Assembly: GCA_009781765.1 (NCBI GenBank)
Contig: WQVC01000007.1
Span: forward strand, 1-49,043
From: Defluviitaleaceae bacterium
GTDB lineage: Bacteria; Bacillota; Clostridia; Lachnospirales; WQUN01
Direction of reading: 5' to 3'
DNA length: 49,043 nucleotides
A program made the translations under genes and the position numbers. Below the pieces are notes generated by a model. That model saw nothing but the letters and a program-made list of their open reading frames with translations, was not told where the DNA came from and searched no databases. Shown one piece after another: positions 3,594 through 44,556 of this stretch (positions are counted from its first letter, which is position 1; the number at the start of each line of letters is the position of its first letter).

Positions 3594-4600
3594 CGCATTT
3601 CACTCGGAACATTTCGTTGGAATTTCCATGTGTCGCGGCACATATCTTCAAGCGACTTTTTTGCGCGAAATTTCAGCATTTTTTCCGCCTTTTCCGGGCT
3701 TGCATAAGCCTCGGGGAAGTCGCCGGGGCGACGCGGCGCAATCGAGCGGGGGAGCTTCAATCCGTTCGTTTTGTCAAAGGCGTCTACCATCTCAAGTACG
3801 GAAATTCCGCGCCCCGTTCCGAGATTAAACACCTCGCAACCCGCATTTTCAGCGGAAAATTCAATCGCGCAAACATGCCCGTCGATTAAATCCGTGATAT
3901 GAATGTAGTCGCGAATGCAAGTTCCGTCGGGTGTATTGTAATCGTTTCCGAAAATTTTGAGCTCGGAATGCAGTCCTGCTGCGGTTTGCGAGATAAACGG
4001 CATCAAATTATTCGGGATTCCGCGAGGGCAATCTCCGATTAAGCCGCTTTCATGCGCGCCCACGGCGTTAAAATATCTAAGTAAAACCACGGAAAAACGC
4101 GGCTCGGCGATGCATAAATCTCGTAAAATTTCTTCGCACATAATTTTTGTGCGCCCGTAAGGGTTTGTCGCGCCGAGGACGGAATCTTCCGTAAGCGGCA
4201 CAGAATTTTCCGGGCTGTATGTTGCCGCCGAAGATGAGAAAATCATGCGAAAAACGCCGTGTTTTCGCATAGTTCGGCAAAGCGTGAGAGTTGAATTTAA
4301 ATTGTTCTCGTAATATTCGAGCGGCTCGGAAACAGATTTGCCGACAGCTTTAAGCCCTGCAAAATGCGTAACGCAGTCGATTTTATGTTCGTAAAAAATT
4401 TTTTCAAGCGCGTTTTCGTCGCGTATGTCGGTTTCATAAAACGGAAAGTCCGAGCCGGAAATTTTTTTAACGCCGTCGAGGGCGGCCTGCGTTCCGTTTG
4501 AAAAATTATCCGCAACGACAATTTCATGCCCGAGGCGCAAAAGTTCCGCACACATGTGGCTTCCGATGTATCCCGCGCCGCCGGTTACCAAGATTTTCAT
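3590..4600 (-). CDS. galE: UDP-glucose 4-epimerase
   Basis: A 336-residue short-chain dehydrogenase-type epimerase converting UDP-galactose and UDP-glucose, cytosolic, supplying sugars for the cell surface and the Leloir pathway. The N-terminus has the NAD-binding motif GGAGYIG, and the catalytic Ser/Tyr-Lys set is seen as SSSAATY and NPYGRTK. The block RYFNAVGAHESGLIGD is diagnostic for GalE. The ATG at 4600 is chosen because it lies 11 bases after AAGGAG and gives MKILVTGGAGYIGSH; an ATG 12 bases upstream is possible. It is the first gene of galE-gshA-ruvA, driven by the promoter at 4636-4664. Confidence 0.95.
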   Translation of the reverse strand: MKILVTGGAGYIGSHMCAELLRLGHEIVVADNFSNGTQAALDGVKKISGSDFPFYETDIRDENALEKIFYEHKIDCVTHFAGLKAVGKSVSEPLEYYENNLNSTLTLCRTMRKHGVFRMIFSSSAATYSPENSVPLTEDSVLGATNPYGRTKIMCEEILRDLCIAEPRFSVVLLRYFNAVGAHESGLIGDCPRGIPNNLMPFISQTAAGLHSELKIFGNDYNTPDGTCIRDYIHITDLIDGHVCAIEFSAENAGCEVFNLGTGRGISVLEMVDAFDKTNGLKLPRSIAPRRPGDFPEAYASPEKAEKMLKFRAKKSLEDMCRDTWKFQRNVPSEMR

Positions 4601-4635
4601 ATATTGAACCAACTCCTTGCTGCAATGGTGCGTTC

Positions 4636-4664
4636 ACTATATTGAAAAAACAGCCGGATGTCAA
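4636..4664 (-). promoter_or_regulatory. Sigma-70-type promoter for galE operon
   Basis: Reading the minus strand, TTGACA (4664-4659) is followed by a 17-base spacer and TATAGT (4641-4636). The predicted transcript start is about 30 bases before the galE ATG. Both boxes are near consensus with ideal spacing. Confidence 0.7.
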
Positions 4665-4721
4665 AGAAGTTTCGCCAAAATCTCGGGGTTTCGCCTCGGG
4701 CATCCGCGAAGTTAAAACCTA

Positions 4722-4774
4722 AGAGTGTTGAAAAATTGTCCGTTCGCAGCTCACGGAATTTTTTAACATTCTCT
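4722..4774. repeat. Family B palindromic repeat, short copy
   Basis: The left end AGAGTGTTGAAAAATT and the right end AATTTTTTAACATTCTCT form an imperfect terminal inverted repeat around a 19-base core containing CCG...CGG. The longer copies at 25393-25497 and 45228-45336 share these ends and, at 25393, the core words CCGTTCGCA and GCAGCTCACGG. This copy is probably internally deleted. Confidence 0.7.
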
Positions 4775-4811
4775 ATTTGGTAACCGCTCAGCTACCGATA
4801 GGTTTTTTTTT
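4773..4811 (+). terminator. Family E hairpin with T-run; orphan terminator
   Basis: Arms CTAT..GGTA and TACC.ATAG enclose a loop containing CCGCTCAG, followed by nine T residues at 4803-4811. It points toward the SBP gene, but no gene lies upstream on this strand because galE is divergent. The loop matches, in inverse orientation, the loop of the terminator at 31731. Confidence 0.6.
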
Positions 4812-5087
4812 GCGCAAAAAATTCCGCCGAACAGGGCGATTGTTCTTAGCCTGTGCTCTTGAAATAATGCGAATTAACCCACATGCTTCCCTTCTCGTGC
4901 TTTTGATGTTAAAAAATCACAAAAAAATATTTTTCTTTCGCTATTTTAGGTTTTTTCGTGTGTTTTTGCGGTTAATTGTTTTTTCGGACGGCGCGAAATT
5001 GCTTTCCGTAGCGTCGGGCTATGTACGATTGCATAAATTTGCATAAGATTTTTAATGAAATATTAACGAATGTTACAAATAAAATTG
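4812..5087. other. Intergenic region, nothing recognised
   Basis: AT-rich DNA between the orphan terminator and the promoter of the transport locus. Short open frames here are low-complexity (Phe/Leu/Arg-rich) with no ribosome site. I see no RNA motif. Confidence 0.4.
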
Positions 5088-5116
5088 TTGCAAACGTGTT
5101 ACGTCCGTGCTAATAT
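5088..5116 (+). promoter_or_regulatory. Putative promoter of the transport locus
   Basis: TTGCAA (5088-5093), a 17-base spacer and TAATAT (5111-5116) lie 26 bases before the ATG at 5143. The -35 and the spacing are good; the -10 matches four of six consensus positions. Confidence 0.45.
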
Positions 5117-5142
5117 TTAAAAAAAATTGGGGGTTCGTGCGC

Positions 5143-8100
5143 ATGGATGACAAATTTGTTGAAAACAAACGCGGGAAATACATCTTTTTAGGGATTGTTG
5201 CCGTTGTTATTGTGGCGTTCATCTTGCTCAGAGGCGAGTCGGATGTTTTGCGTTTTCGCGACGTCGCCGACCTGCATGTGGGCTTTCCGCCGCCGGAGGG
5301 TTCTTACGCGGCGTTTTTGAGCTACCATGAAAATACACCTCACGGTTCGGATGACGTTGAAATCAATATTTTCAGCCCCACCGCCGGCGTCGAAGGCGAA
5401 GACTTCATTATAACAGACGATTATCACGGCTACCGTGTTTTGCGCACGGAAGAGGGTTCGTATGTTGAATTTACCGTAAACGTGCCGCAGGCTGGGCTTT
5501 ATCATATTCGTGCGGAGTATTTTCCCACGTTGGTTGACGCGCGCGGCATTGATATTCAGCGCGAATTACGTATTAACGGCGAAATTCCGTTCGCAGGTGC
5601 GGAGCTTATTACACTGCGTCGCGTTTGGGGTTCGGCCGGTCCGATTCGCGAAGATAACAGAGGAAACCAGATACGTCCGCCCCAAGTGGAGCATCCGCGT
5701 TGGGAACGGACGTATTTTATTGACAGATTGGGCTTTTTCACCGACCCGTATATGTTTTTCTTTGAAGCCGGCGCAAACACAATTTCGTTCACGGGCATAA
5801 ACGAGCCGCTTGTATTAAGAAGCCTTGAGCTTGCGCCGGTTCGCGAACTGCCGACTTTCAGCGAATTCCGTGACGAAACGCCCCTTCCCGTACGCAACGA
5901 CGATTTTTACCTTCGTGTGCAGGGCGAGTCGTCCACGTTCCGTTCGTCGCCGAGCCTTTTTCCGATTTTCGATAATTCCAGCGGCATAACCGACCCGCCT
6001 TCCGTCGCGTTAATTAGTCTTAATATGATTGGCGGAACGCCGTGGCGTATTCCGGGGCAGTGGATTGAATGGGATGTTGAAGTCCCCGACGACGGGCTTT
6101 ATCGCATTCACGTGTCTGCGCGGCAGGGTTATAATCGCGGATTTGTTTCCGCGCGAACTCTTTCGGTCAACGGTGTCGTGCCGTTTGCGGAAGTCGCGGC
6201 AATTCCGTTTCAATTTAATAATAGTTGGGAGCTTATTACCCTTTCGGACGCGGATGGAAATCCGCTGTATTTCCCGCTGAATGCGGGAACAAACACGCTT
6301 CGTATGTACGTTACCTTGGGCGAAATGGGCGTGATGATTGACGAGCTTTTGGCAAGTGTGCATCGTCTTAATGAAATTTATCGGGAAATCATGGTGCTTA
6401 CCGGCCCTGAGCCCGACCCCCTTCGCGACTATCGTGTGCATGTGGAATTGCCGCATGTTGTGGGGGGCGTGTACGATTCGGACGGCGTATGGCAGCGCGG
6501 CATGATTGACGTGGAAATTGATATGCTGTACGGGCTTTTGGCCCGAATGGAAGAATATCTCGGCGAGCGCAACGAGCATACCGGAATACTTGCGGCGACG
6601 GTGTCGCAGCTCGACACTTTCTACGCCCGCCCGAACAGAATCCCGACGCAGCTTATAAACTTCCGCCAAAATATTTCGGCGTTGGCGAACACCGCGCGCG
6701 AGTTGACTGAATCGCCGCTTGACATCGACTTTTTCATCATAGGCGGAACGGAAACGGAGTTGCCGAGGGTTCGTGAAACTTTATTAACCCGCGCATCTCA
6801 CGAAATAAGCGCGTTTGTTGCAAGTTTTACCCACGATTTTGACGCTATCGGCAACGATTTTGCCGAGGGCGAAGCTATAGAAATTTGGATAACCCACGGG
6901 CGCGACCAAGCTACCGCGCTGAAATCCCTCATCGACGAGCAATTTACTCCCGAAACGGGCATCGGCGTGAACTTGCGGCTTGTAAACCCTGCGGCGGTTT
7001 TGCCGGCGGTTGTTGCCGGAATCGGGCCGGACGTTGTAATGGGAATGATGGGAAATACCGCCGCCGAGTATGCGTTTCGTAATGCCGCTGTTGACTTGAC
7101 GCAATTTGAAGGCGGGGAGCGGTATCGCGTTGACGAACACGGCGTTACGCATGTCCGATATGTGCCCGGTTTTGAAGACATTTACGACCGTTTTCACGGA
7201 AGCGTATGGGTGCGTTTGCGCTTTATCGACGCCGACGACCATGTCGGTTATTTCGGAATGCCCGAAACGCAAAATTTCAGCCTGATGTTTTATCGTTCCG
7301 ATATTTTGGAAGAACTCGGACTCGAAGCCCCCGAAACGTGGAGCGATGTTTTGGCGATGATGCCGATAATTCAGCGTCAAAACATGGCAATCGGAATACC
7401 GCCCATCGGCAACCCCATGGCACCGGACATCGGCGGATTTTTGACGCAACTTTATCAGCGCGGCGGATTCTTGTATGTGGATGAATGCCCCGAATACGTT
7501 GAAACCGGCGCGGAGTGCGGAATTTGTGAGGTTTGCGTGTTCGGAATATTCTCCCGCACCGCCCTCGGTTCGGAAGAGGCATTGGATGCGTTTGAAGCGT
7601 TTACGCGATTTTTTACGCATTTCGGTTCGCCGCAATTTTTCGACCCGCTTACGCGCTTCCGCAGCGGCGAAATGCCCATTGTTTTCGCCGATTTCGGAAT
7701 GTTCAATACATTGAGCGTGTTCGCGCCGGAGCTGACCGGTTTGTGGAATTTCGCGCCCATGCCCGGGTACGACCATATTGAGCCGGTATACGCGCCCCAT
7801 CGCGGCGGATATTATCGCGTACACCACACTATTCCCGACTGGGGAACGGCCGCGATTATGATTTACGAAAGCGACCATCACGACGAGTCGTGGGAGTTTT
7901 TAACATGGTGGACGTCCACCGAAACGCAGCTTCGTTTCGGGCGAGAAATGGAATCAATCATGGGTGAGGCGGCGCGTTATCCGACGGCAAACCTCGACGC
8001 ATTTAACAGCTTGCCGTGGAGTTCTTCGCAGCTTGCCGTTTTGAACGAGCAACGCGATTGGATTCTCGGAACACCGGAAATCCCCGGCGGATACTACGTT

Positions 8101-36640: not shown

Positions 36641-37375
36641 ATGAAGAAATATTTCGCGGCTGTCATCCTTCTCGTGCTGATTTTCCCGGCGAAAACCGCA
36701 GCAGCAATCGGGGTTGAGTTTGACCAACGAATTGTAACGTTCGACGGGTATGAGCCGGTTATTATCGACGCGGTTGTTCTTGTGCCGGTGCGGACATTGT
36801 TCGAAGAAATGGGCTTTTGCGTGGAATGGGACGAGGTAACGGTGACGCTTACCGGAAGCGGACACGTTGTTGTTATCGTGCCGAGCAGTGATATTTTCAC
36901 CGTAAACGGTGAGGCGTTCCGGTCGGAAGGCCCGGCGCGAAACATCGACGGGCGTGTGTTTGTGCCGATTGCCGATGTTATTCCGAGCATAAATTACGGC
37001 ATCGGACGCGACGGATTCGGCGCGGAAACCACGTTTATACGAATCGGCGTGCCGATAGATTTTGAAAATTTCGGGCAGGGTATTTTCGATGAAATAAATT
37101 TGCGTCGGGCAGAATACGGGCTTGCGCCGTTGTTATGGTGCGACGATTTGGCGGAAACTGCTCGCGCCGGTTACGGTTGGAGTACCGGATTTCAGCCCGC
37201 TATGAGAATTTCCGCGCCGGACGTTCTTGTGCAGAGCTTCATGTCGCGCAATTATTACCGATATTTGCGCGCCGCAATGTTGTGTCCCGACGCGACGTAT
37301 ATCGGCCTTGCGTATGAGCATCGCGGTTGGGGGCGGTCGTCGCCGCTGAATTTTCTCTTTGACAATGCGCCGTAA
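36641..37375 (+). CDS. Secreted stalk-domain/CAP-like protein
   Basis: A 244-residue exported protein. The signal peptide is MKKYFAAVILLVLIFPAKTA. Residues about 25-135 match the copper-amine-oxidase N-terminal (stalk) domain common in Firmicute envelope proteins: VVLVPVRTLFEEMGFCVEWD, then GRVFVPIADVIPSI. The C-terminal part, from about 148, has the CAP/SCP start FDEINLRRAEYGLAPLLWCDDLAETAR and ends with YIGLAYEHRGWGR, but is shorter than a full CAP domain, and its middle (VLVQSFMSRNYYRYLRAAML) departs from the usual W..SPGHR segment. It is likely a cell-wall protein of unknown activity. GGGAGG precedes the ATG. Confidence 0.72.
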   Translation: MKKYFAAVILLVLIFPAKTAAAIGVEFDQRIVTFDGYEPVIIDAVVLVPVRTLFEEMGFCVEWDEVTVTLTGSGHVVVIVPSSDIFTVNGEAFRSEGPARNIDGRVFVPIADVIPSINYGIGRDGFGAETTFIRIGVPIDFENFGQGIFDEINLRRAEYGLAPLLWCDDLAETARAGYGWSTGFQPAMRISAPDVLVQSFMSRNYYRYLRAAMLCPDATYIGLAYEHRGWGRSSPLNFLFDNAP

Positions 37376-38289: not shown

Positions 38290-38738
38290 GATGCCATCAG
38301 GCTGCATAAATCCAGGAAAAATTCTTGGAAAATTTCCTGGAACGATTCCGGATATCATGGTACGAGAGTTGAAGTATACTTGCCCTGCAACCGAGAAATT
38401 AACGGTCGCTTCCATGCCAAAGGACGCTGTTTGCCATCTCAGGAAGGGGTTCGCCCTGAAACTGACCGCACCGCTCCGTGCCGAAGCCGCTGTATAACGG
38501 TTGCATGTAACACCATGCTTCACCGTACCACCCGCAACACCTGTACCACTGCAACACCTGTACCATCCGCCGCAACATATGAAAGCGGGCGGATGCATTC
38601 GGACACGGCCGACCGAATGCAAACGCCCACGTGCACACCTTCCATACAACGCGGCAACGCGGAGCGAAAGCTCTGCAAACCCGAAGTTCCCGGGGCTTCG
38701 GTTACTTACTTAAAACAAATCAATAAAAAAGAATCGCG
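38290..38738. other. Intergenic, no supported gene
   Basis: About 450 bases of higher-GC, C/A-rich DNA with open frames on both strands but no ribosome site or recognisable protein. GCAACACCTGTACCA is repeated at 38534-38548 and 38551-38565. It may be decayed coding DNA. Confidence 0.35.
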
Positions 38739-39138: not shown

Positions 39139-39268
39139 TTGACAAATGCATACTCTTGCAATAATGCTTCGCAGGCAAGCGGTAGCGTTGCCGCTTTGCC
39201 GACCCCAAAAAAAAGCAGCATATTACATAAAAGACCGTTTTTTGCGTTAGCCGCAAGCGGTCTTTTTA
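39139..39268 (+). promoter_or_regulatory. Possible leader with transcription attenuator
   Basis: TTGACA at 39139-39144 (weak -10 near 39160) precedes a hairpin GGCAAGCGG/CCGCTTTGCC (39174-39200) and a terminator-like hairpin AAAAGACCG/CGGTCTTTT (39229-39266) ending in T. The right arm of the first hairpin can also pair with GCAAGCGG in the terminator's right half, as in attenuators. The gene starts 41 bases later. Confidence 0.4.
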
Positions 39269-39308
39269 TGTTCGAGCAAAGCAAATAAAAACAGAAAGAG
39301 GTGAGTAA

Positions 39309-40040
39309 ATGAGTAAAAAAAAGACAATAGCCCTGGCAGCATTGGCTGCATTGGGGGTACTGCTCATACTCGCGGCAGGAGGATTCCTTTTAATAAGACT
39401 TTCGTCAGGGTTTAGTATACCTTGGCTTGGCATCCGACCCAACTTGCCGTACAGGGTATGGTGGAGTTGGGATGAAATGAAGGAGGGCTTGGGTGACCAT
39501 TATTTATACCCGACGTATTTGCCGGAGGTTGCCGAGCGGAGTGAACGTGTCTCTATGCGCTCTGATTATAACGTTGGTTCGAGAAACCGAGAAAGCGACG
39601 AATTATTTTTTGGATATTCTGTTCGCTTTTCAGGTGATTGGCAGGATGACGTTATATATATCGGTGCCGAGGACGGCGAGAGGCGGAACAGCGTCTTTGA
39701 CAACGCACGCCTGAGGCCGGACTATGCTGAGCGCAGGGAAATGTTGCTTGAGGAAATATTTTACGAACGCACATGGTTTAACGAACACACCGTAACCGTA
39801 GGGGGCATAGACATTGCATTTAATTCGCTTTATGAGGTATACCGCCCATCCCCCTTTGAACACGCAGACCGCGCCCTAAACAGGCACACCATTGGTTACA
39901 CATTCACGATAGACACTGTAACATATTGGATGTCATGGGTTCAGCTTAATGTGGAAGATAAATACGCCGATGATGAACAGCGGGAGGTAATGCTTCGTGT
40001 CGCTGTGTCTATCATTGAGCAAGTGAGGGAGATTGAATAA
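39309..40040 (+). CDS. Membrane-anchored protein, paralog 1, unknown family
   Basis: I do not recognise this 243-residue protein. A Lys-rich start and one helix (about 7-30) anchor it in the membrane, with the rest outside. From about residue 45 it is clearly paralogous to the next gene: NLPYRVWWSWDEMKEGLGDH, LYPTYLPEV, then FNEHTVTVGGIDIAF, YTFTIDTVTYWMSWVQLNVE and the end SIIEQVREIE. The alternation of strands and the two conserved Trp-containing blocks suggest a compact alpha/beta sensor or inhibitor-like domain. AGAGGTGA precedes the ATG. It follows a possible attenuator and is 111 bases before its paralog. Confidence 0.7.
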   Translation: MSKKKTIALAALAALGVLLILAAGGFLLIRLSSGFSIPWLGIRPNLPYRVWWSWDEMKEGLGDHYLYPTYLPEVAERSERVSMRSDYNVGSRNRESDELFFGYSVRFSGDWQDDVIYIGAEDGERRNSVFDNARLRPDYAERREMLLEEIFYERTWFNEHTVTVGGIDIAFNSLYEVYRPSPFEHADRALNRHTIGYTFTIDTVTYWMSWVQLNVEDKYADDEQREVMLRVAVSIIEQVREIE

Positions 40041-40151
40041 GTATAAAAACAACGCACAGCAAGGCTTTAAATAACATATCCCAATATTTCCGATAGGATA
40101 TGGCTTGTTATAACAATAAGGTGCAGTTTAGATTGAAAGGAGACGTGCTTA

Positions 40152-40847
40152 ATGAAAAAAATGTTACTCGTACCGGTGTTATTGCTGTTGTTTGTTGCTT
40201 GCACCCCGCGACCGGAATCAGAATTGCCGACCGGAGGGGGGAACTTGCCGTACAGGGTATGGGCAAGTTGGGAAGAAATGAAAGAAGTTTTGGGCGACCA
40301 CTATTTATATCCGACTTATTTGCCAGCGGTTACCGCGTTGAGCGAACGACCGTCTATGCGCTCGTGGTTCAACAATGTCGATAGGACGTTAGTTGCTGAT
40401 GAGTTGTTTCACGAATATCTTGCCGTCTTTCCCGGTAACGACAGAATGAGCGACGAAATAACAATTTCAGCGACGGATTTAGAAAGGCGAAGATTCGTCA
40501 TACCACGGTCACCGGATTTTCCCCCTGTTCTCGTTCCTTTTAACGGTGGGTTTCAAGAAGAACATCGCTTCAATGAACATATCGTAACAATAGATGACAT
40601 CAATATAGAGTTTGTTTCGTTTTTTGCCGTTTTTTCACCGGAAGGAACTTTTGACCGGGATGAGTGGTTTCGCTACCACCCGCGAAACGGGAGGGCTGTT
40701 CTTTATACATTCATTATAGATACCGTAACATACGAAATGTCTTGGGTGCAATTTAATGTCGAAGATAGCCACGACGATAGTGAACAACGAGAAGGGATGC
40801 TTCGAGTTGCTACGTCCATCATTGAACAAGTGAGAGAGGTTGAATGA
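40152..40847 (+). CDS. Lipoprotein, paralog 2, unknown family
   Basis: A 231-residue lipoprotein whose signal peptide ends LFVAC at about residue 17. Its mature part repeats the layout of the gene before it: NLPYRVWASWEEMKEVLGDH, LYPTYLPAV, FNEHIVTIDDINIEF, YTFIIDTVTYEMSWVQFNVE, SIIEQVREVE. The middle (about 70-140) has diverged more, as expected when a fixed scaffold carries a variable surface. One copy has a membrane helix and the other a lipid anchor, so both face outward. GAAAGGAGA lies upstream. Its TGA overlaps the first ATG of the peptidase gene, so the three genes probably form one operon. Confidence 0.72.
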   Translation: MKKMLLVPVLLLLFVACTPRPESELPTGGGNLPYRVWASWEEMKEVLGDHYLYPTYLPAVTALSERPSMRSWFNNVDRTLVADELFHEYLAVFPGNDRMSDEITISATDLERRRFVIPRSPDFPPVLVPFNGGFQEEHRFNEHIVTIDDINIEFVSFFAVFSPEGTFDRDEWFRYHPRNGRAVLYTFIIDTVTYEMSWVQFNVEDSHDDSEQREGMLRVATSIIEQVREVE

Positions 40848-43152
40848 TTATGAAAAAGTTTCTGAGTGTGTTTCTGATTTTTATATTGTTAAACGCCCTC
40901 GCCGTGCAAATTTCGGCGCAGGATATGTCCGGCACAACCGGACCGGCAATCGGGATGGATGCTTTTATGTTTGATTCCGATGCTTTTATGTATAACGATT
41001 ATGTTTCCGCGCTTGAAATTGATATTTTCGTGGCATTGGTCAATGACGGCACAAACGCCATAAACCCTCAAACGGTGGAAGTGCTTTACGATTTAAGCGG
41101 AAACCCGTCTTTCTTGCTTGCGGATATTGTGCCGTACGGATTTGCGATTATGTTTCGACGCGCCGCTGAAATAAGTGAAATGGTCACTTCGGAAGGTGCG
41201 ACAAGCCCGTTTGCAATGGCAAGAGGGCGGAAAATGTACGCTGGTCCGATGGCGTATATAGATTTTTATGACGGGGTTTATACAAATTTATTAACGGGTT
41301 GGGCATTAGGCAATGCTTCCGTCCAACATATGCAGATGGTTACCGAAAACGTACTTGACGACCTGCCCGCGCCGCTGCTCGTTCGGTCGTTTTCTTTCAC
41401 CGGTGAACGTCGAATCAGCAATCAGAATATTATCAGGAATGTAGGGTTTGCAGATAACACTCACGGGTCGTGCGGTCCTGTAGCAGCCGCTATTATTCTT
41501 GTTTACTACGAAAAACTTGAACAGGCGAACGGTCGCCCTGCGGGAAGAGTTGTTCCTGCGCAATTGTTTCCTCAGAACATGCGCCAATGCAGTCTCCTTG
41601 AAAACGTGATGATTGAACATATGGGGTACAGTGGGGCTTCGACCTCAGTAGTTCTCCCAGAGATTATGCTCGGATAGGATGGACACCAACTAATCGGTTT
41701 GCTGTAGCCAGAGGGCTGAACAATTATTTCAATGACCCCGCACACCCGAGCCGCAGAGCGTTAAGAATGTCGGCTTCATCGTCCTCAGAAAATATGGTTA
41801 ATCGTACAGCAGGCGAGATTAGGGCAGACAGACCGGCGGTTGTTCTTACAAACAATCGCCCTCCGGCAGATTTCGGCAGTAACATAGATTTTGGCAGCCA
41901 CTGGATGGTAGCATACGGATACAGAATGATTGGTGGCACGGTCACACATCTTATCGTCCATACGGGAGCTTGGCATAACCAAACGACACCTTTTGATGAA
42001 GCAGCTGTTTTCGAAGGTTGGTTTGATTCCATCGTCACAGTACGCCCTCCAATCACCCCCGACCCTCCTCCCGACCCGTTCCGCATTGCCGGCGGAAGAA
42101 ATTTAAATCTCAGACCGCACGTAATCCTGTCGAACTCCCGAACTCGTGACCGTTGGACAAGCAGTGATACTCGCGTTGCAACTGTTGACTCCGAAGGGAT
42201 TGTTCGCTTTGTCGGTCCCGGTATTGCGCGGATTACCCACTTTAACGGAGATGACAATGTAAACTCTCATTTCACATTCGAGGTTTTCCGACCGATGAGA
42301 AGTTTGCAAACCAACAGGCCGTCTTCACGGGAGCGTCGTTTGAGGGTAAACAGAAACGGCACAGGGGGAACTACACTTCAACTCAGACCAATATTTACAC
42401 CGTCGGACACAACATCACTCCCCCTGCATTGGTCATCCTCCGATACTCGAGTGGTTATAGTTAATCAAAACGGGTTAGTCACCGCACGAGGGCGAGGAAC
42501 CGCAACTGTAACGGTAACAAATACACCTCATCCCGGGGGCAGGGCAAGAACCACGCGCGTCAATTTCGTTGTGGAGTACAATCCGGAAAGGATAACAATC
42601 AATCACAGGGGAAATCAGATATCGGACATATTGCTTGCAGTAAATCGCGACATTACACCGAGGGCTCATATTACCCCGGACAGAGCGCAGGGGCTTTGCC
42701 GTGACGCGCAAAGAAATATTACATGGACATCGTCAAACCCCAATATTGTTTCCGTAAATACAAGAGGAAGACCAACCGCACACGTACCCGGTTCGGCAGT
42801 AATAACAGCTACAACAGTAAACGGGATTACCGCACGATACATAGTGACTGCGGTTGTGCCTGTTTCGTCGGTAAGCATCGCTTCATTAACGCCCTCGCAA
42901 CTCGAAGCAATGACTGTTGACGCCAACGGACGCGGAAGAAGCACACCGCTTTTCGCAACTGTTACGCCTACCAATGCCACGCACCGGCATATCACATGGA
43001 CATCTTCAAACCCTAACGTTGTTTCCGTCAACAGTAACGGCGTCGTTACCACGCAAGGGGCAGGCACTGCAAGAATCACTGCCACTACCCCTGCCACCGG
43101 CGCGCAAAGGGCGCGAAGCACAAGTATATCAATTCGCGTACGGCAACGGTAA
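40844..43152 (+). pseudogene. Secreted C39-like cysteine peptidase with Ig-like repeats, frameshifted
   Basis: Two frames together make one secreted protein of about 770 residues. The first (40844-41677) has a signal peptide (KKFLSVFLIFILLNALAV) and the cysteine block NTHGSCGPVAAAIILVYYE. The second, open from 41617 to 43152 with its first Met at 41767, has the matching histidine block GSHWMVAYGYRM, then four BIG2-type Ig-like repeats (ITWTSSNPNIVSVNTRG and ITWTSSNPNVVSVNSNG are the clearest). The break lies between 41617 and 41677: the second frame is shifted by minus one, as after loss of one base. I see no slippery heptamer. It may be a pseudogene, a sequencing error or a programmed shift. 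The start is ATG 40844 or 40850. A small repeat DAFMFDSDAFMYND lies after the signal. Confidence 0.7.
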
Positions 43153-43425: not shown

Positions 43426-44556
43426 ATGAAAAAAATTATTTTCACATTCATTGCGATTTGTTTGGGCGGGGTGACGCTCGGGCTTGGAATAAGCGCGGGA
43501 AACGCAACGTTTTCGCGGATTGCGGAGGAAAGAATCCCGGAAATCGAAGATTCGCAAATTACAACGATGCGAGTAAATCCGCTGGTTGTGCCGCTTGATA
43601 CCCACGAAGTATGTTTCGTTGAGGTGATTGCGCAGGCAAAGCCGTCGGTTGTGAGCATAAATGTAACTGCGCCGGCAGGGCGTTCGGGGCGGGGTGAGCT
43701 TCCGGGTTCGGGTTCGGGCTTTATTTTTGCCCGCGACGACGAGTATGTATTTATCGCAACAAATAATCACGTTGTTGAAAACACAACATCCGTTACGATT
43801 TCGCCGGATGACGAAGCGCAAATTCCCGCGCGAATCGTCGGATACGACATCGCATCGGATATTGCGGTGGTTGCGGCGTTACGCGCGGATATTGAGGCGG
43901 CCGGCGGATACGCGATTGCGGTATTCGGCGATTCGGACGCGCTTCGCATGGGCGACGCGGTTGTTGCAATCGGAAACGCGATGGGCGAAGGGCAGACCGT
44001 TACGCGCGGCATAATCAGTGCGTTGTCGCTGAACATAGAAATTCCGGACGCGCATCGGCGTCTTAATCTGAACGTTTTACAAACCGACGCGGCGGTAAAT
44101 CGCGGCAACAGCGGCGGCCCGCTTGTGAATCGAAACGGCGAAGTTATCGGAATTGTAACGGCAAAGCTGATTGGCTCGGACATCGAAGGCATGGGATACG
44201 CTCTGCCGATTAACGACGTTCGGCACATTTTGGATGATATTATCGAGGTCGGTTCGGTGCGTCGGGCGTGGCTCGGCATTCACCACGAGGAAGTATCGGA
44301 ATTTTTCCGAGGCTTGTTTAATCTGCCGTCAACGGGAATTTTGGTGCGCGCAGTCATTGAAGATTCGCCCGCCGAAGAAGCCGGTCTGCAATCCCTCGAC
44401 TTGATTACGCACATTTCCGGTCGCCGCATTGAGGGTCTTTCCGATTTGCAAAGTGTTCTTAACACGATTCGCCCCGGCGATGAAATTACAATCAGACTTT
44501 ACCGCGCCGGCGAAAGTATGGAGCTTTCGTTGATACCGGGAAGCCGCATGAACTAG
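43426..44556 (+). CDS. HtrA-like serine protease with PDZ domain
   Basis: A 376-residue membrane-anchored or secreted protease of the HtrA/DegP family, acting on damaged envelope proteins. The N-terminal hydrophobic segment is at about 3-22. The trypsin-like domain shows the triad His115 (TNNHVVE), Asp145 (YDIASDIAVV) and Ser229 (NRGNSGGPLV). One PDZ domain follows at about 275-370 (VEDSPAEEAGLQSLDLITHI-like, with I for V). The length and single PDZ match Gram-positive HtrA proteins. AATGAGGTG precedes the ATG at 43426. It is bounded by terminator hairpins on both sides, so it is monocistronic. Confidence 0.93.
   Translation: MKKIIFTFIAICLGGVTLGLGISAGNATFSRIAEERIPEIEDSQITTMRVNPLVVPLDTHEVCFVEVIAQAKPSVVSINVTAPAGRSGRGELPGSGSGFIFARDDEYVFIATNNHVVENTTSVTISPDDEAQIPARIVGYDIASDIAVVAALRADIEAAGGYAIAVFGDSDALRMGDAVVAIGNAMGEGQTVTRGIISALSLNIEIPDAHRRLNLNVLQTDAAVNRGNSGGPLVNRNGEVIGIVTAKLIGSDIEGMGYALPINDVRHILDDIIEVGSVRRAWLGIHHEEVSEFFRGLFNLPSTGILVRAVIEDSPAEEAGLQSLDLITHISGRRIEGLSDLQSVLNTIRPGDEITIRLYRAGESMELSLIPGSRMN

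What the first reader, a model, noticed from the sequence alone, without database searches (positions are those of the whole stretch)
39309..43152. Operon of two unknown envelope paralogs with a secreted C39-like peptidase
Seen: a helix-anchored and a lipid-anchored copy of one unknown domain are followed, with ATGA overlap, by a secreted cysteine peptidase carrying four Ig-like wall-binding repeats. The scaffold (LPYRVW.SW.EMKE, LGDHYLYPTYLP) is constant while the middle varies. Inference: the paralogs could be inhibitors, immunity proteins or sensors for the peptidase, as in toxin-antidote or prodomain systems. I know no described system with this layout.
Basis: inference. Interest (0 to 1): 0.66.

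Follow-up and report, generated by a model that had tools for sequence, protein, structure and literature searches.

The report
Secreted peptidase with membrane-anchored partner genes
A bacterium carries two diverged copies of a gene set that pairs a secreted protein-cutting enzyme with one or two membrane-anchored partner proteins of an otherwise unseen family, which most likely restrain that enzyme; the set resembles known enzyme-plus-inhibitor pairs, but the copy in this window has a broken enzyme gene.

Summary
The envelope paralogs are real: P1 (39309-40040, helix-anchored) and P2 (40152-40847, lipobox), 55% identical, conserved at the ends and variable in the middle. P2 overlaps the next gene by ATGA. 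The peptidase is not one open gene here: its Cys half (40844-41677) and its His half with four Big_2 repeats (to 43152) lie in different frames. Contig C127 of the same genome holds a second cassette, P2' plus an intact 748-aa peptidase with the same overlap. The peptidase is C39_2/C10-like with its own pro-region; Cys and His are kept, but the Asp present in 10 of 10 homologs is Ala or Thr. The paralog domain lies beside this peptidase 3 of 3 times and was found nowhere else. Distant homologs often have an unrelated anchored protein next door (3 of 7 a lipobox gene within 70 bp; ORF base rate 5 of 145). Best reading: envelope-anchored cognate inhibitor or immunity partners, working like the described Bfp/Bfi and Btp/Bti pairs of Bacteroides but built on an orphan domain. 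Inhibition is inferred, not shown. New variant of a known kind.

The parts
39309..40040 (+). P1: helix-anchored paralog, 243 aa, domain from N45 (39441)
   Evidence: ORF and sequence; 55% identical to P2 domain; no Pfam/NCBIfam family above cut-off
40152..40847 (+). P2: lipoprotein paralog, 231 aa, lipobox LFVAC, domain from N31 (40242)
   Evidence: 61% identical to P2' on contig C127
40844..41677 (+). Peptidase, first half: signal peptide, pro-region, Cys motif GSCGP; ends in a stop
   Evidence: 68% identical to the intact C127 peptidase
41617..43152 (+). Peptidase, second half in another frame (first ATG 41767): His motif HWMVAYGY and four Big_2 repeats (about 42067-43149, by eye)
   Evidence: (Big_2 E 4.9e-35)
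39225..39271 (.). Hairpin about 40 nt before P1, present in both cassette copies
38311..38723 (+). Copy of a ~413-bp interspersed repeat in the upstream flank shared by both cassettes

Best explanation
This is a duplicated cassette that makes a secreted papain-like (C39_2/C10-like) peptidase with its own pro-region and a C-terminal Big_2 stalk, together with one or two membrane-anchored partner proteins. The partners most likely bind the peptidase at the outer face of the membrane, where it is exported and matures, and keep it off the producer's own envelope: a cognate inhibitor or immunity protein, translated just before the enzyme through the ATGA overlap. P2 is the obligate partner (present in both copies and overlapping the enzyme gene in both). 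P1 is an extra one, absent from the copy with the intact enzyme. Shown: genes, anchors, overlap, linkage, pro-region, Cys and His. Inferred: binding, inhibition, self-protection, activity of the enzyme.
For: Linkage 3 of 3 in the own genome, with the same ATGA overlap in both copies. Domain not found elsewhere: 60 other relatives; 392 genomes of the order, own included, where hits outside the own genome had E 0.01-0.09; genome contigs; viral contigs; plasmids and phages. Full-length homology of the C127 peptidase, pro-region included, to L049 (23% over 305 aa, E 1e-15), which is a PF13529 member. Other homologs with a pro-region also sit next to small anchored proteins of unrelated sequence: of 7 counted loci, 3 have a lipobox gene 13-67 bp downstream and 2 an N-terminally anchored protein with weak PepSY/TseB similarity 296-396 bp downstream; lipobox base rate 5 of 145 ORFs. 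Published precedent for the layout: PMC2873492, PMC3462683 (passages). Both low-confidence fold models match best the Mog1/PsbP-like superfamily, which holds the lipoprotein immunity protein Tsi3 and the Eag chaperones.
Against: No test of binding or inhibition was possible. The aligned third catalytic residue (Asp in 10 of 10 homologs) is Ala in C127 and Thr in the window, so the enzyme may be weak or inactive, and a dead enzyme needs no inhibitor. The window enzyme is split. dN/dS is low, so there is no sign of an arms race. L103, a near copy of L094, lacks the companion, and L047, L096 and L098 show no inhibitor-like neighbour. The companions of the homologs stand after the enzyme, not before it. 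The domain is known from one genome only, and the two cassettes may descend from one duplication, so the linkage is not independent evidence.
Confidence: 0.45

Rival explanations
1. The paralogs are membrane-bound chaperones or maturation factors that fold, tether or activate the exported peptidase, not inhibitors.
For: ATGA coupling with P2 first; the low-confidence fold models also match Eag chaperones and DcrB; the peptidase already carries a pro-region, so an extra inhibitor is less needed.
Against: In the homologs the neighbours differ in sequence family and some are PepSY/TseB-like, a type linked to inhibition in other peptidases (recalled); a chaperone would be expected to be conserved, and the middle of this domain is the most diverged part.
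Confidence: 0.22
2. No functional pairing: an orphan lipoprotein family of this species that happens to sit in one operon with a decaying peptidase gene.
For: Domain in a single genome; window peptidase split; catalytic Asp lost in both copies.
Against: Linkage and overlap are kept in both copies although they are diverged to 51-81% DNA identity over most of P2 and the peptidase, and both genes are under purifying selection.
Confidence: 0.22
3. The paralogs are surface sensors or regulators of the DUF4367 type (extracytoplasmic part of anti-sigma-like proteins, a role recalled and not from a call).
For: The PTYLPE stretch aligns in the same register with DUF4367 in every subset tried; score 23.5 against at most 18.8 in 300 column shuffles, 21.5 in 200 block shuffles and 17.8 in 200 template shuffles.
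Against: HHalign probability only 0.2-16% across full set and subsets, while real DUF4367 subsets score 97.5-99.7%; no Pfam hit; P1 has a 5-residue cytoplasmic end and P2 none, so neither can signal inward alone.
Confidence: 0.06

Closest known systems
Bacteroides fragilis Bfp1/Bfi1A/Bfi1B and B. thetaiotaomicron Btp/Bti (C10 protease with co-transcribed staphostatin-like inhibitors; PMC2873492, PMC3462683)
   Same: Exported papain-like protease with SpeB-like pro-region; one or two small exported or lipoprotein partners within tens of bases, co-directional; paralogous sets in one genome; one published set (BtpZ) is also described as not a functional protease.
   Different: Here the partner domain is about 200 aa (theirs are 116-138 aa proteins), has no detectable sequence relation to solved staphostatins, and stands before the enzyme as two anchored paralogs; the enzyme ends in four Big_2 repeats and is C39_2-like rather than plain C10.
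SpeB/Spi (streptopain and its inhibitor)
   Same: Papain-like secreted enzyme, I69-like pro-region, neighbouring candidate inhibitor.
   Different: Spi is a propeptide analogue; this domain does not resemble the pro-region.
Secreted Peptidase_C39_2 (PF13529) proteins of the same phylum with a pro-region
   Same: Full-length homology to L049, Cys and His kept.
   Different: Below Pfam's cut-off, Asp replaced, Big_2 stalk.
DUF4367 (PF14285)
   Same: PTYLPE-like motif and, loosely, the order of elements.
   Different: No significant profile match.
Tse3/Tsi3 (effector and lipoprotein immunity protein)
   Same: Works-like analogy: membrane-anchored immunity protein (recalled); weak fold match of a low-confidence model (Z 7.0, 3.5 A over 97 residues).
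   Different: Type VI muramidase effector system of Gram-negatives; no sequence relation found.

Membership tests
Peptidase_C39_2 (PF13529) | Score above the curated cut-off (24 bits) | tested here: not met
   13.7 and 12.4 bits for the two copies; linked only through L049, 36.7 bits
Peptidase_C39_2 (PF13529) | Catalytic Cys and His | tested here: met
   Present at the aligned columns in both copies and in the homologs
Peptidase_C39_2 (PF13529) | Third catalytic residue Asp (role recalled) after the V-H/N/K motif | tested here: not met
   Asp in 10 of 10 other rows, Ala in C127, Thr in the window
C10 (streptopain-like) with I69 pro-region | Spi/I69-type pro-region | tested here: inconclusive
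   No direct Pfam hit; collinear pro-region homology to L049; more distant homologs L101 and L096 hit I69 just under cut-off, 23.9 and 21.4 against 25 bits
Staphostatin / Bfi / Bti inhibitors | Gene next to and co-directional with a papain-like protease | tested here: met
   ATGA overlap in both cassettes
Staphostatin / Bfi / Bti inhibitors | Sequence relation to solved inhibitors | tested here: inconclusive
   No PDB sequence match up to E 10, but Bfi themselves are only 15-23% identical to staphostatins (PMC2873492)
Staphostatin / Bfi / Bti inhibitors | Small single domain, 116-138 aa protein | tested here: not met
   Mature domain about 200 aa
Staphostatin / Bfi / Bti inhibitors | Inhibits the neighbouring protease | not testable with these tools
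   needs an assay
Spi-type propeptide mimic | Similarity of the partner to the enzyme's pro-region | tested here: not met
   hhalign probability 0.1, E 0.63
DUF4367 (PF14285) | Profile match at family level | tested here: not met
   No Pfam hit; hhalign probability 12%, true members 97.5-99.7%
Mog1/PsbP-like fold (DcrB, Eag, Tsi3, PsbP; grouping recalled) | Six-stranded meander sheet and C-terminal helix | tested here: inconclusive
   Two AF2 models with this layout but mean pLDDT 44.5 and 45.5; best Z 9.8, DcrB, 3.2 A over 102 residues
Big_2 (PF02368) | Above cut-off, repeated | tested here: met
   119.8 bits, 4 stretches; 117.3 bits, 4 stretches in C127

The most novel reading that the evidence does not exclude
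A species-restricted, exchangeable antagonism cassette: a secreted papain-like peptidase on a Big_2 stalk, with lipid- and helix-anchored immunity proteins of a new family whose variable middle matches allelic forms of the peptidase. The core is swapped between loci by recombination in shared flanks, which would explain why the non-coding upstream flank (75-94% identical) and the 3' end (87-95%) are closer than the P2 core (51-56%).
Probability: 0.15. Interest if true: 0.62.

Novelty: new variant of a known kind. Interest (0 to 1): 0.4.

Why it matters
It adds an example to a pattern described mainly for streptococci, staphylococci and Bacteroides: secreted papain-like proteases travel with dedicated partners. 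Distant C39_2 peptidases with a pro-region sit next to small lipoproteins or anchored PepSY-like proteins of unrelated families, which suggests that partners were recruited several times; that is testable across sequenced genomes. The orphan domain itself has no annotated relatives, so its structure and its effect on the enzyme would be new information.

Tried and rejected
Prodomain mimicry (probability 0.1). DUF4367 membership: motif-level resemblance only. Weak profile hits in 392 genomes of the order (E 0.012-0.09): my first look at them read the minus-strand loci on the wrong strand; redone for all 15. They are stray matches, no more than chance gives. The best-looking one, L033, is an RCC1-like lipoprotein (my reading) with one 36-residue local match. 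Structured RNA around the operon: only sub-threshold Rfam matches. Defence and phage libraries: nothing worth following. Solved structures by sequence: none for paralog or peptidase. Viral contigs: no confirmed relative. Genome contigs with the homolog L049: none. Plasmids with L049 and L101: only distant records. Programmed frameshifting as the reason for the split: set aside by inference, because the second copy is open throughout and I saw no usual slippery motif by eye; not tested. Paper searches on this pairing: (passages of two Bacteroides papers read; these five searches listed nothing on DUF4367 or on C39-like peptidases with lipoprotein partners; subscription journals are mostly missing).

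Rows dropped before the neighbour count: of 13 peptidase loci outside the own genome (10, 3 new ones) I dropped L100 (fragment), L095, L097 and L099 (no pro-region), and L103 and L105 (near copies of L094 and L101). L047 was not counted. The seven counted are L092 (same place as L049), L093 (same as L050), L094, L096, L098, L101, L104. L104's own reading frame is interrupted between pro-region and catalytic part, and L098 shows no clear signal peptide in the frame read.

Full report
What is there. P1 (39309-40040) and P2 (40152-40847) are two copies of one domain of about 200 aa, 55% identical. P1 begins with a hydrophobic helix after five cytoplasmic residues; P2 has a lipobox. Both ends of the domain are conserved (70-78% in 50-codon segments of P1/P2) and the middle is not (36-38%). 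P2 and the next gene share ATGA at 40844-40847; 111 nt separate P1 from P2. No family of Pfam, NCBIfam, PHROGs or PADLOC describes the paralogs convincingly.

The peptidase. In the window it is split. The first half (40844-41677) has signal peptide, pro-region and the Cys motif; the second (open from about 41617, first ATG 41767, to 43152) has the His motif and four Big_2 repeats in another frame. The own genome G000 (2.94 Mb, 154 contigs) has a second cassette on contig C127: P2' (3819-4499, 61% identical to P2) and an uninterrupted 748-aa peptidase (4496-6742) with the same overlap. Just upstream of P2' the ribosome-binding stretch and first codons of P1 seem to persist, followed at once by a stop, so P1 may have been lost there; this rests on a short match. 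All pieces show dN/dS of 0.07-0.33, though several dS values are saturated.

Which family. The catalytic half of the C127 peptidase has no Pfam hit by itself, and PF13529 (Peptidase_C39_2) finds only the two copies in the own genome, both under cut-off (13.7 and 12.4 against 24 bits). A search of 398 genomes of the phylum gave L049, with 23% identity over 305 aa including the pro-region, a member of PF13529 at E 7.9e-9 with a weak Peptidase_C10 match. More distant homologs match the Spi/I69 pro-region family just under cut-off. Cys and His are aligned throughout, but the Asp found in 10 of 10 other rows is Ala in C127 and Thr in the window.

How widespread. The paralog domain was found 3 of 3 times beside this peptidase in the own genome and in none of 60 further relatives, with no significant match among the other genomes of 392 searched in the order, none in genome contigs or viral contigs, none in plasmid or phage records. 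The first 400 aa of the peptidase were likewise absent at E 0.001 from 60 relatives. The profile search of 398 genomes found matches to the wider peptidase group in 9, own included, and a search of 24 genomes around G511 found 3, G511 included.

Neighbours of the distant homologs. Of 13 loci outside the own genome, seven with a pro-region and not near-duplicates were counted (dropped rows are listed under Tried and rejected). Three have a lipobox gene directly downstream on the same strand: L092 26 bp, L093 67 bp, L101 13 bp. Two have a single-helix-anchored protein with weak PepSY/TseB similarity 396 and 296 bp downstream (L094, L104). One has a small multi-helix protein (L096) and one a secreted copper-amine-oxidase-N protein (L098). 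In 50 control loci 5 of 145 ORFs were lipobox-positive by the same rule, two of them probably the same gene seen in overlapping loci. Three of seven is more than that rate gives, but n is small and the test was shaped after seeing two cases. Against: L103, a near copy of L094, lacks the companion, and the neighbours stand after the enzyme, not before it as here.

Comparison of the two cassettes. The shared non-coding flank upstream is 75-94% identical per 100-150 bases, the P2 middle 51-56%, most of the peptidase 60-81%, the last Big_2 repeats 87-95%. The coding core is thus older or differently exchanged than its flanks. This suits recombination between loci through shared flanks, which include a many-copy repeat. 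It does not by itself show diversifying selection, since synonymous sites are saturated too.

Fold of the domain. Two AlphaFold2 models from two window sequences are poor (mean pLDDT 44.5 and 45.5), yet both show a sheet of about six strands in meander order followed by a long C-terminal helix. With such models this is a hint, not a result. A DUF4367-like motif (PTYLPE) aligns better than all shuffles, but far below true members.

Mechanism. The published layouts closest to this are Bfp/Bfi and Btp/Bti of Bacteroides (passages read): exported papain-like proteases with pro-regions, transcribed together with small exported, often lipid-anchored, proteins taken as inhibitors. By analogy, P2 and P1 would hold or block the peptidase at the membrane of the producer. 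Steps shown: anchors, overlap, linkage, pro-region, Cys/His. Steps inferred: binding, inhibition, self-protection. Chief doubts are the missing Asp, the split enzyme in the window and the single-genome distribution of the domain.

Verdict. Real genes, partly misread (the enzyme is split), with a sensible inference and a described precedent for the layout. The partner domain is an orphan. I rate it a new variant of a known kind, interest 0.4.

Noticed in passing
window 38311-38723: Copy of a ~413-bp interspersed intergenic repeat with a sharp left end (GGAAAAATTCC-like units), two conserved blocks and a variable short-repeat middle. About 40 places in the own genome as a floor (one search scored only 40 of 345 candidates), often at contig ends; only short partial matches in 2 of 9 same-genus genomes and one 28-base match in one more, of 41 genomes searched with the own one. 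No Rfam family; 3 of 95 predicted pairs with a compensatory change.
   Followed up: partly
L006:6751-7014 (contig C127, downstream of the second cassette): Part of the same repeat also follows the C127 cassette, so that copy has repeat sequence on both sides.
   Followed up: partly
window 36641-37375: Secreted Cu_amine_oxidN1 protein with only 26 of 117 positions of a CAP domain matched (E 0.041): possibly a truncated CAP protein.
   Followed up: no
window 43426-44556: HtrA-like trypsin/PDZ protease 273 bp after the peptidase, same strand; could matter for envelope stress or activation.
   Followed up: no
L106 (NZ_CP127373.1, 126923-135978): A Bacillus arachidis plasmid gene with a C39-like match, annotated PA14 domain-containing, lies beside a polymorphic toxin type 44 gene, a second C39 family peptidase and a lactococcin 972 bacteriocin with an ABC protein.
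   Followed up: no
L047 (OR848143.1): Record named Listeria phage LM 4-14-1 holds, beside the C39-like gene, ORFs that read like a PepO-type peptidase, ribose-phosphate pyrophosphokinase and NifS-like genes (my reading of translations); it looks like bacterial chromosome. The record is marked unverified.
   Followed up: no
L104, L105: Peptidase reading frames are interrupted in two other genomes as well (G794, G798), so broken copies of this peptidase type may be common.
   Followed up: no
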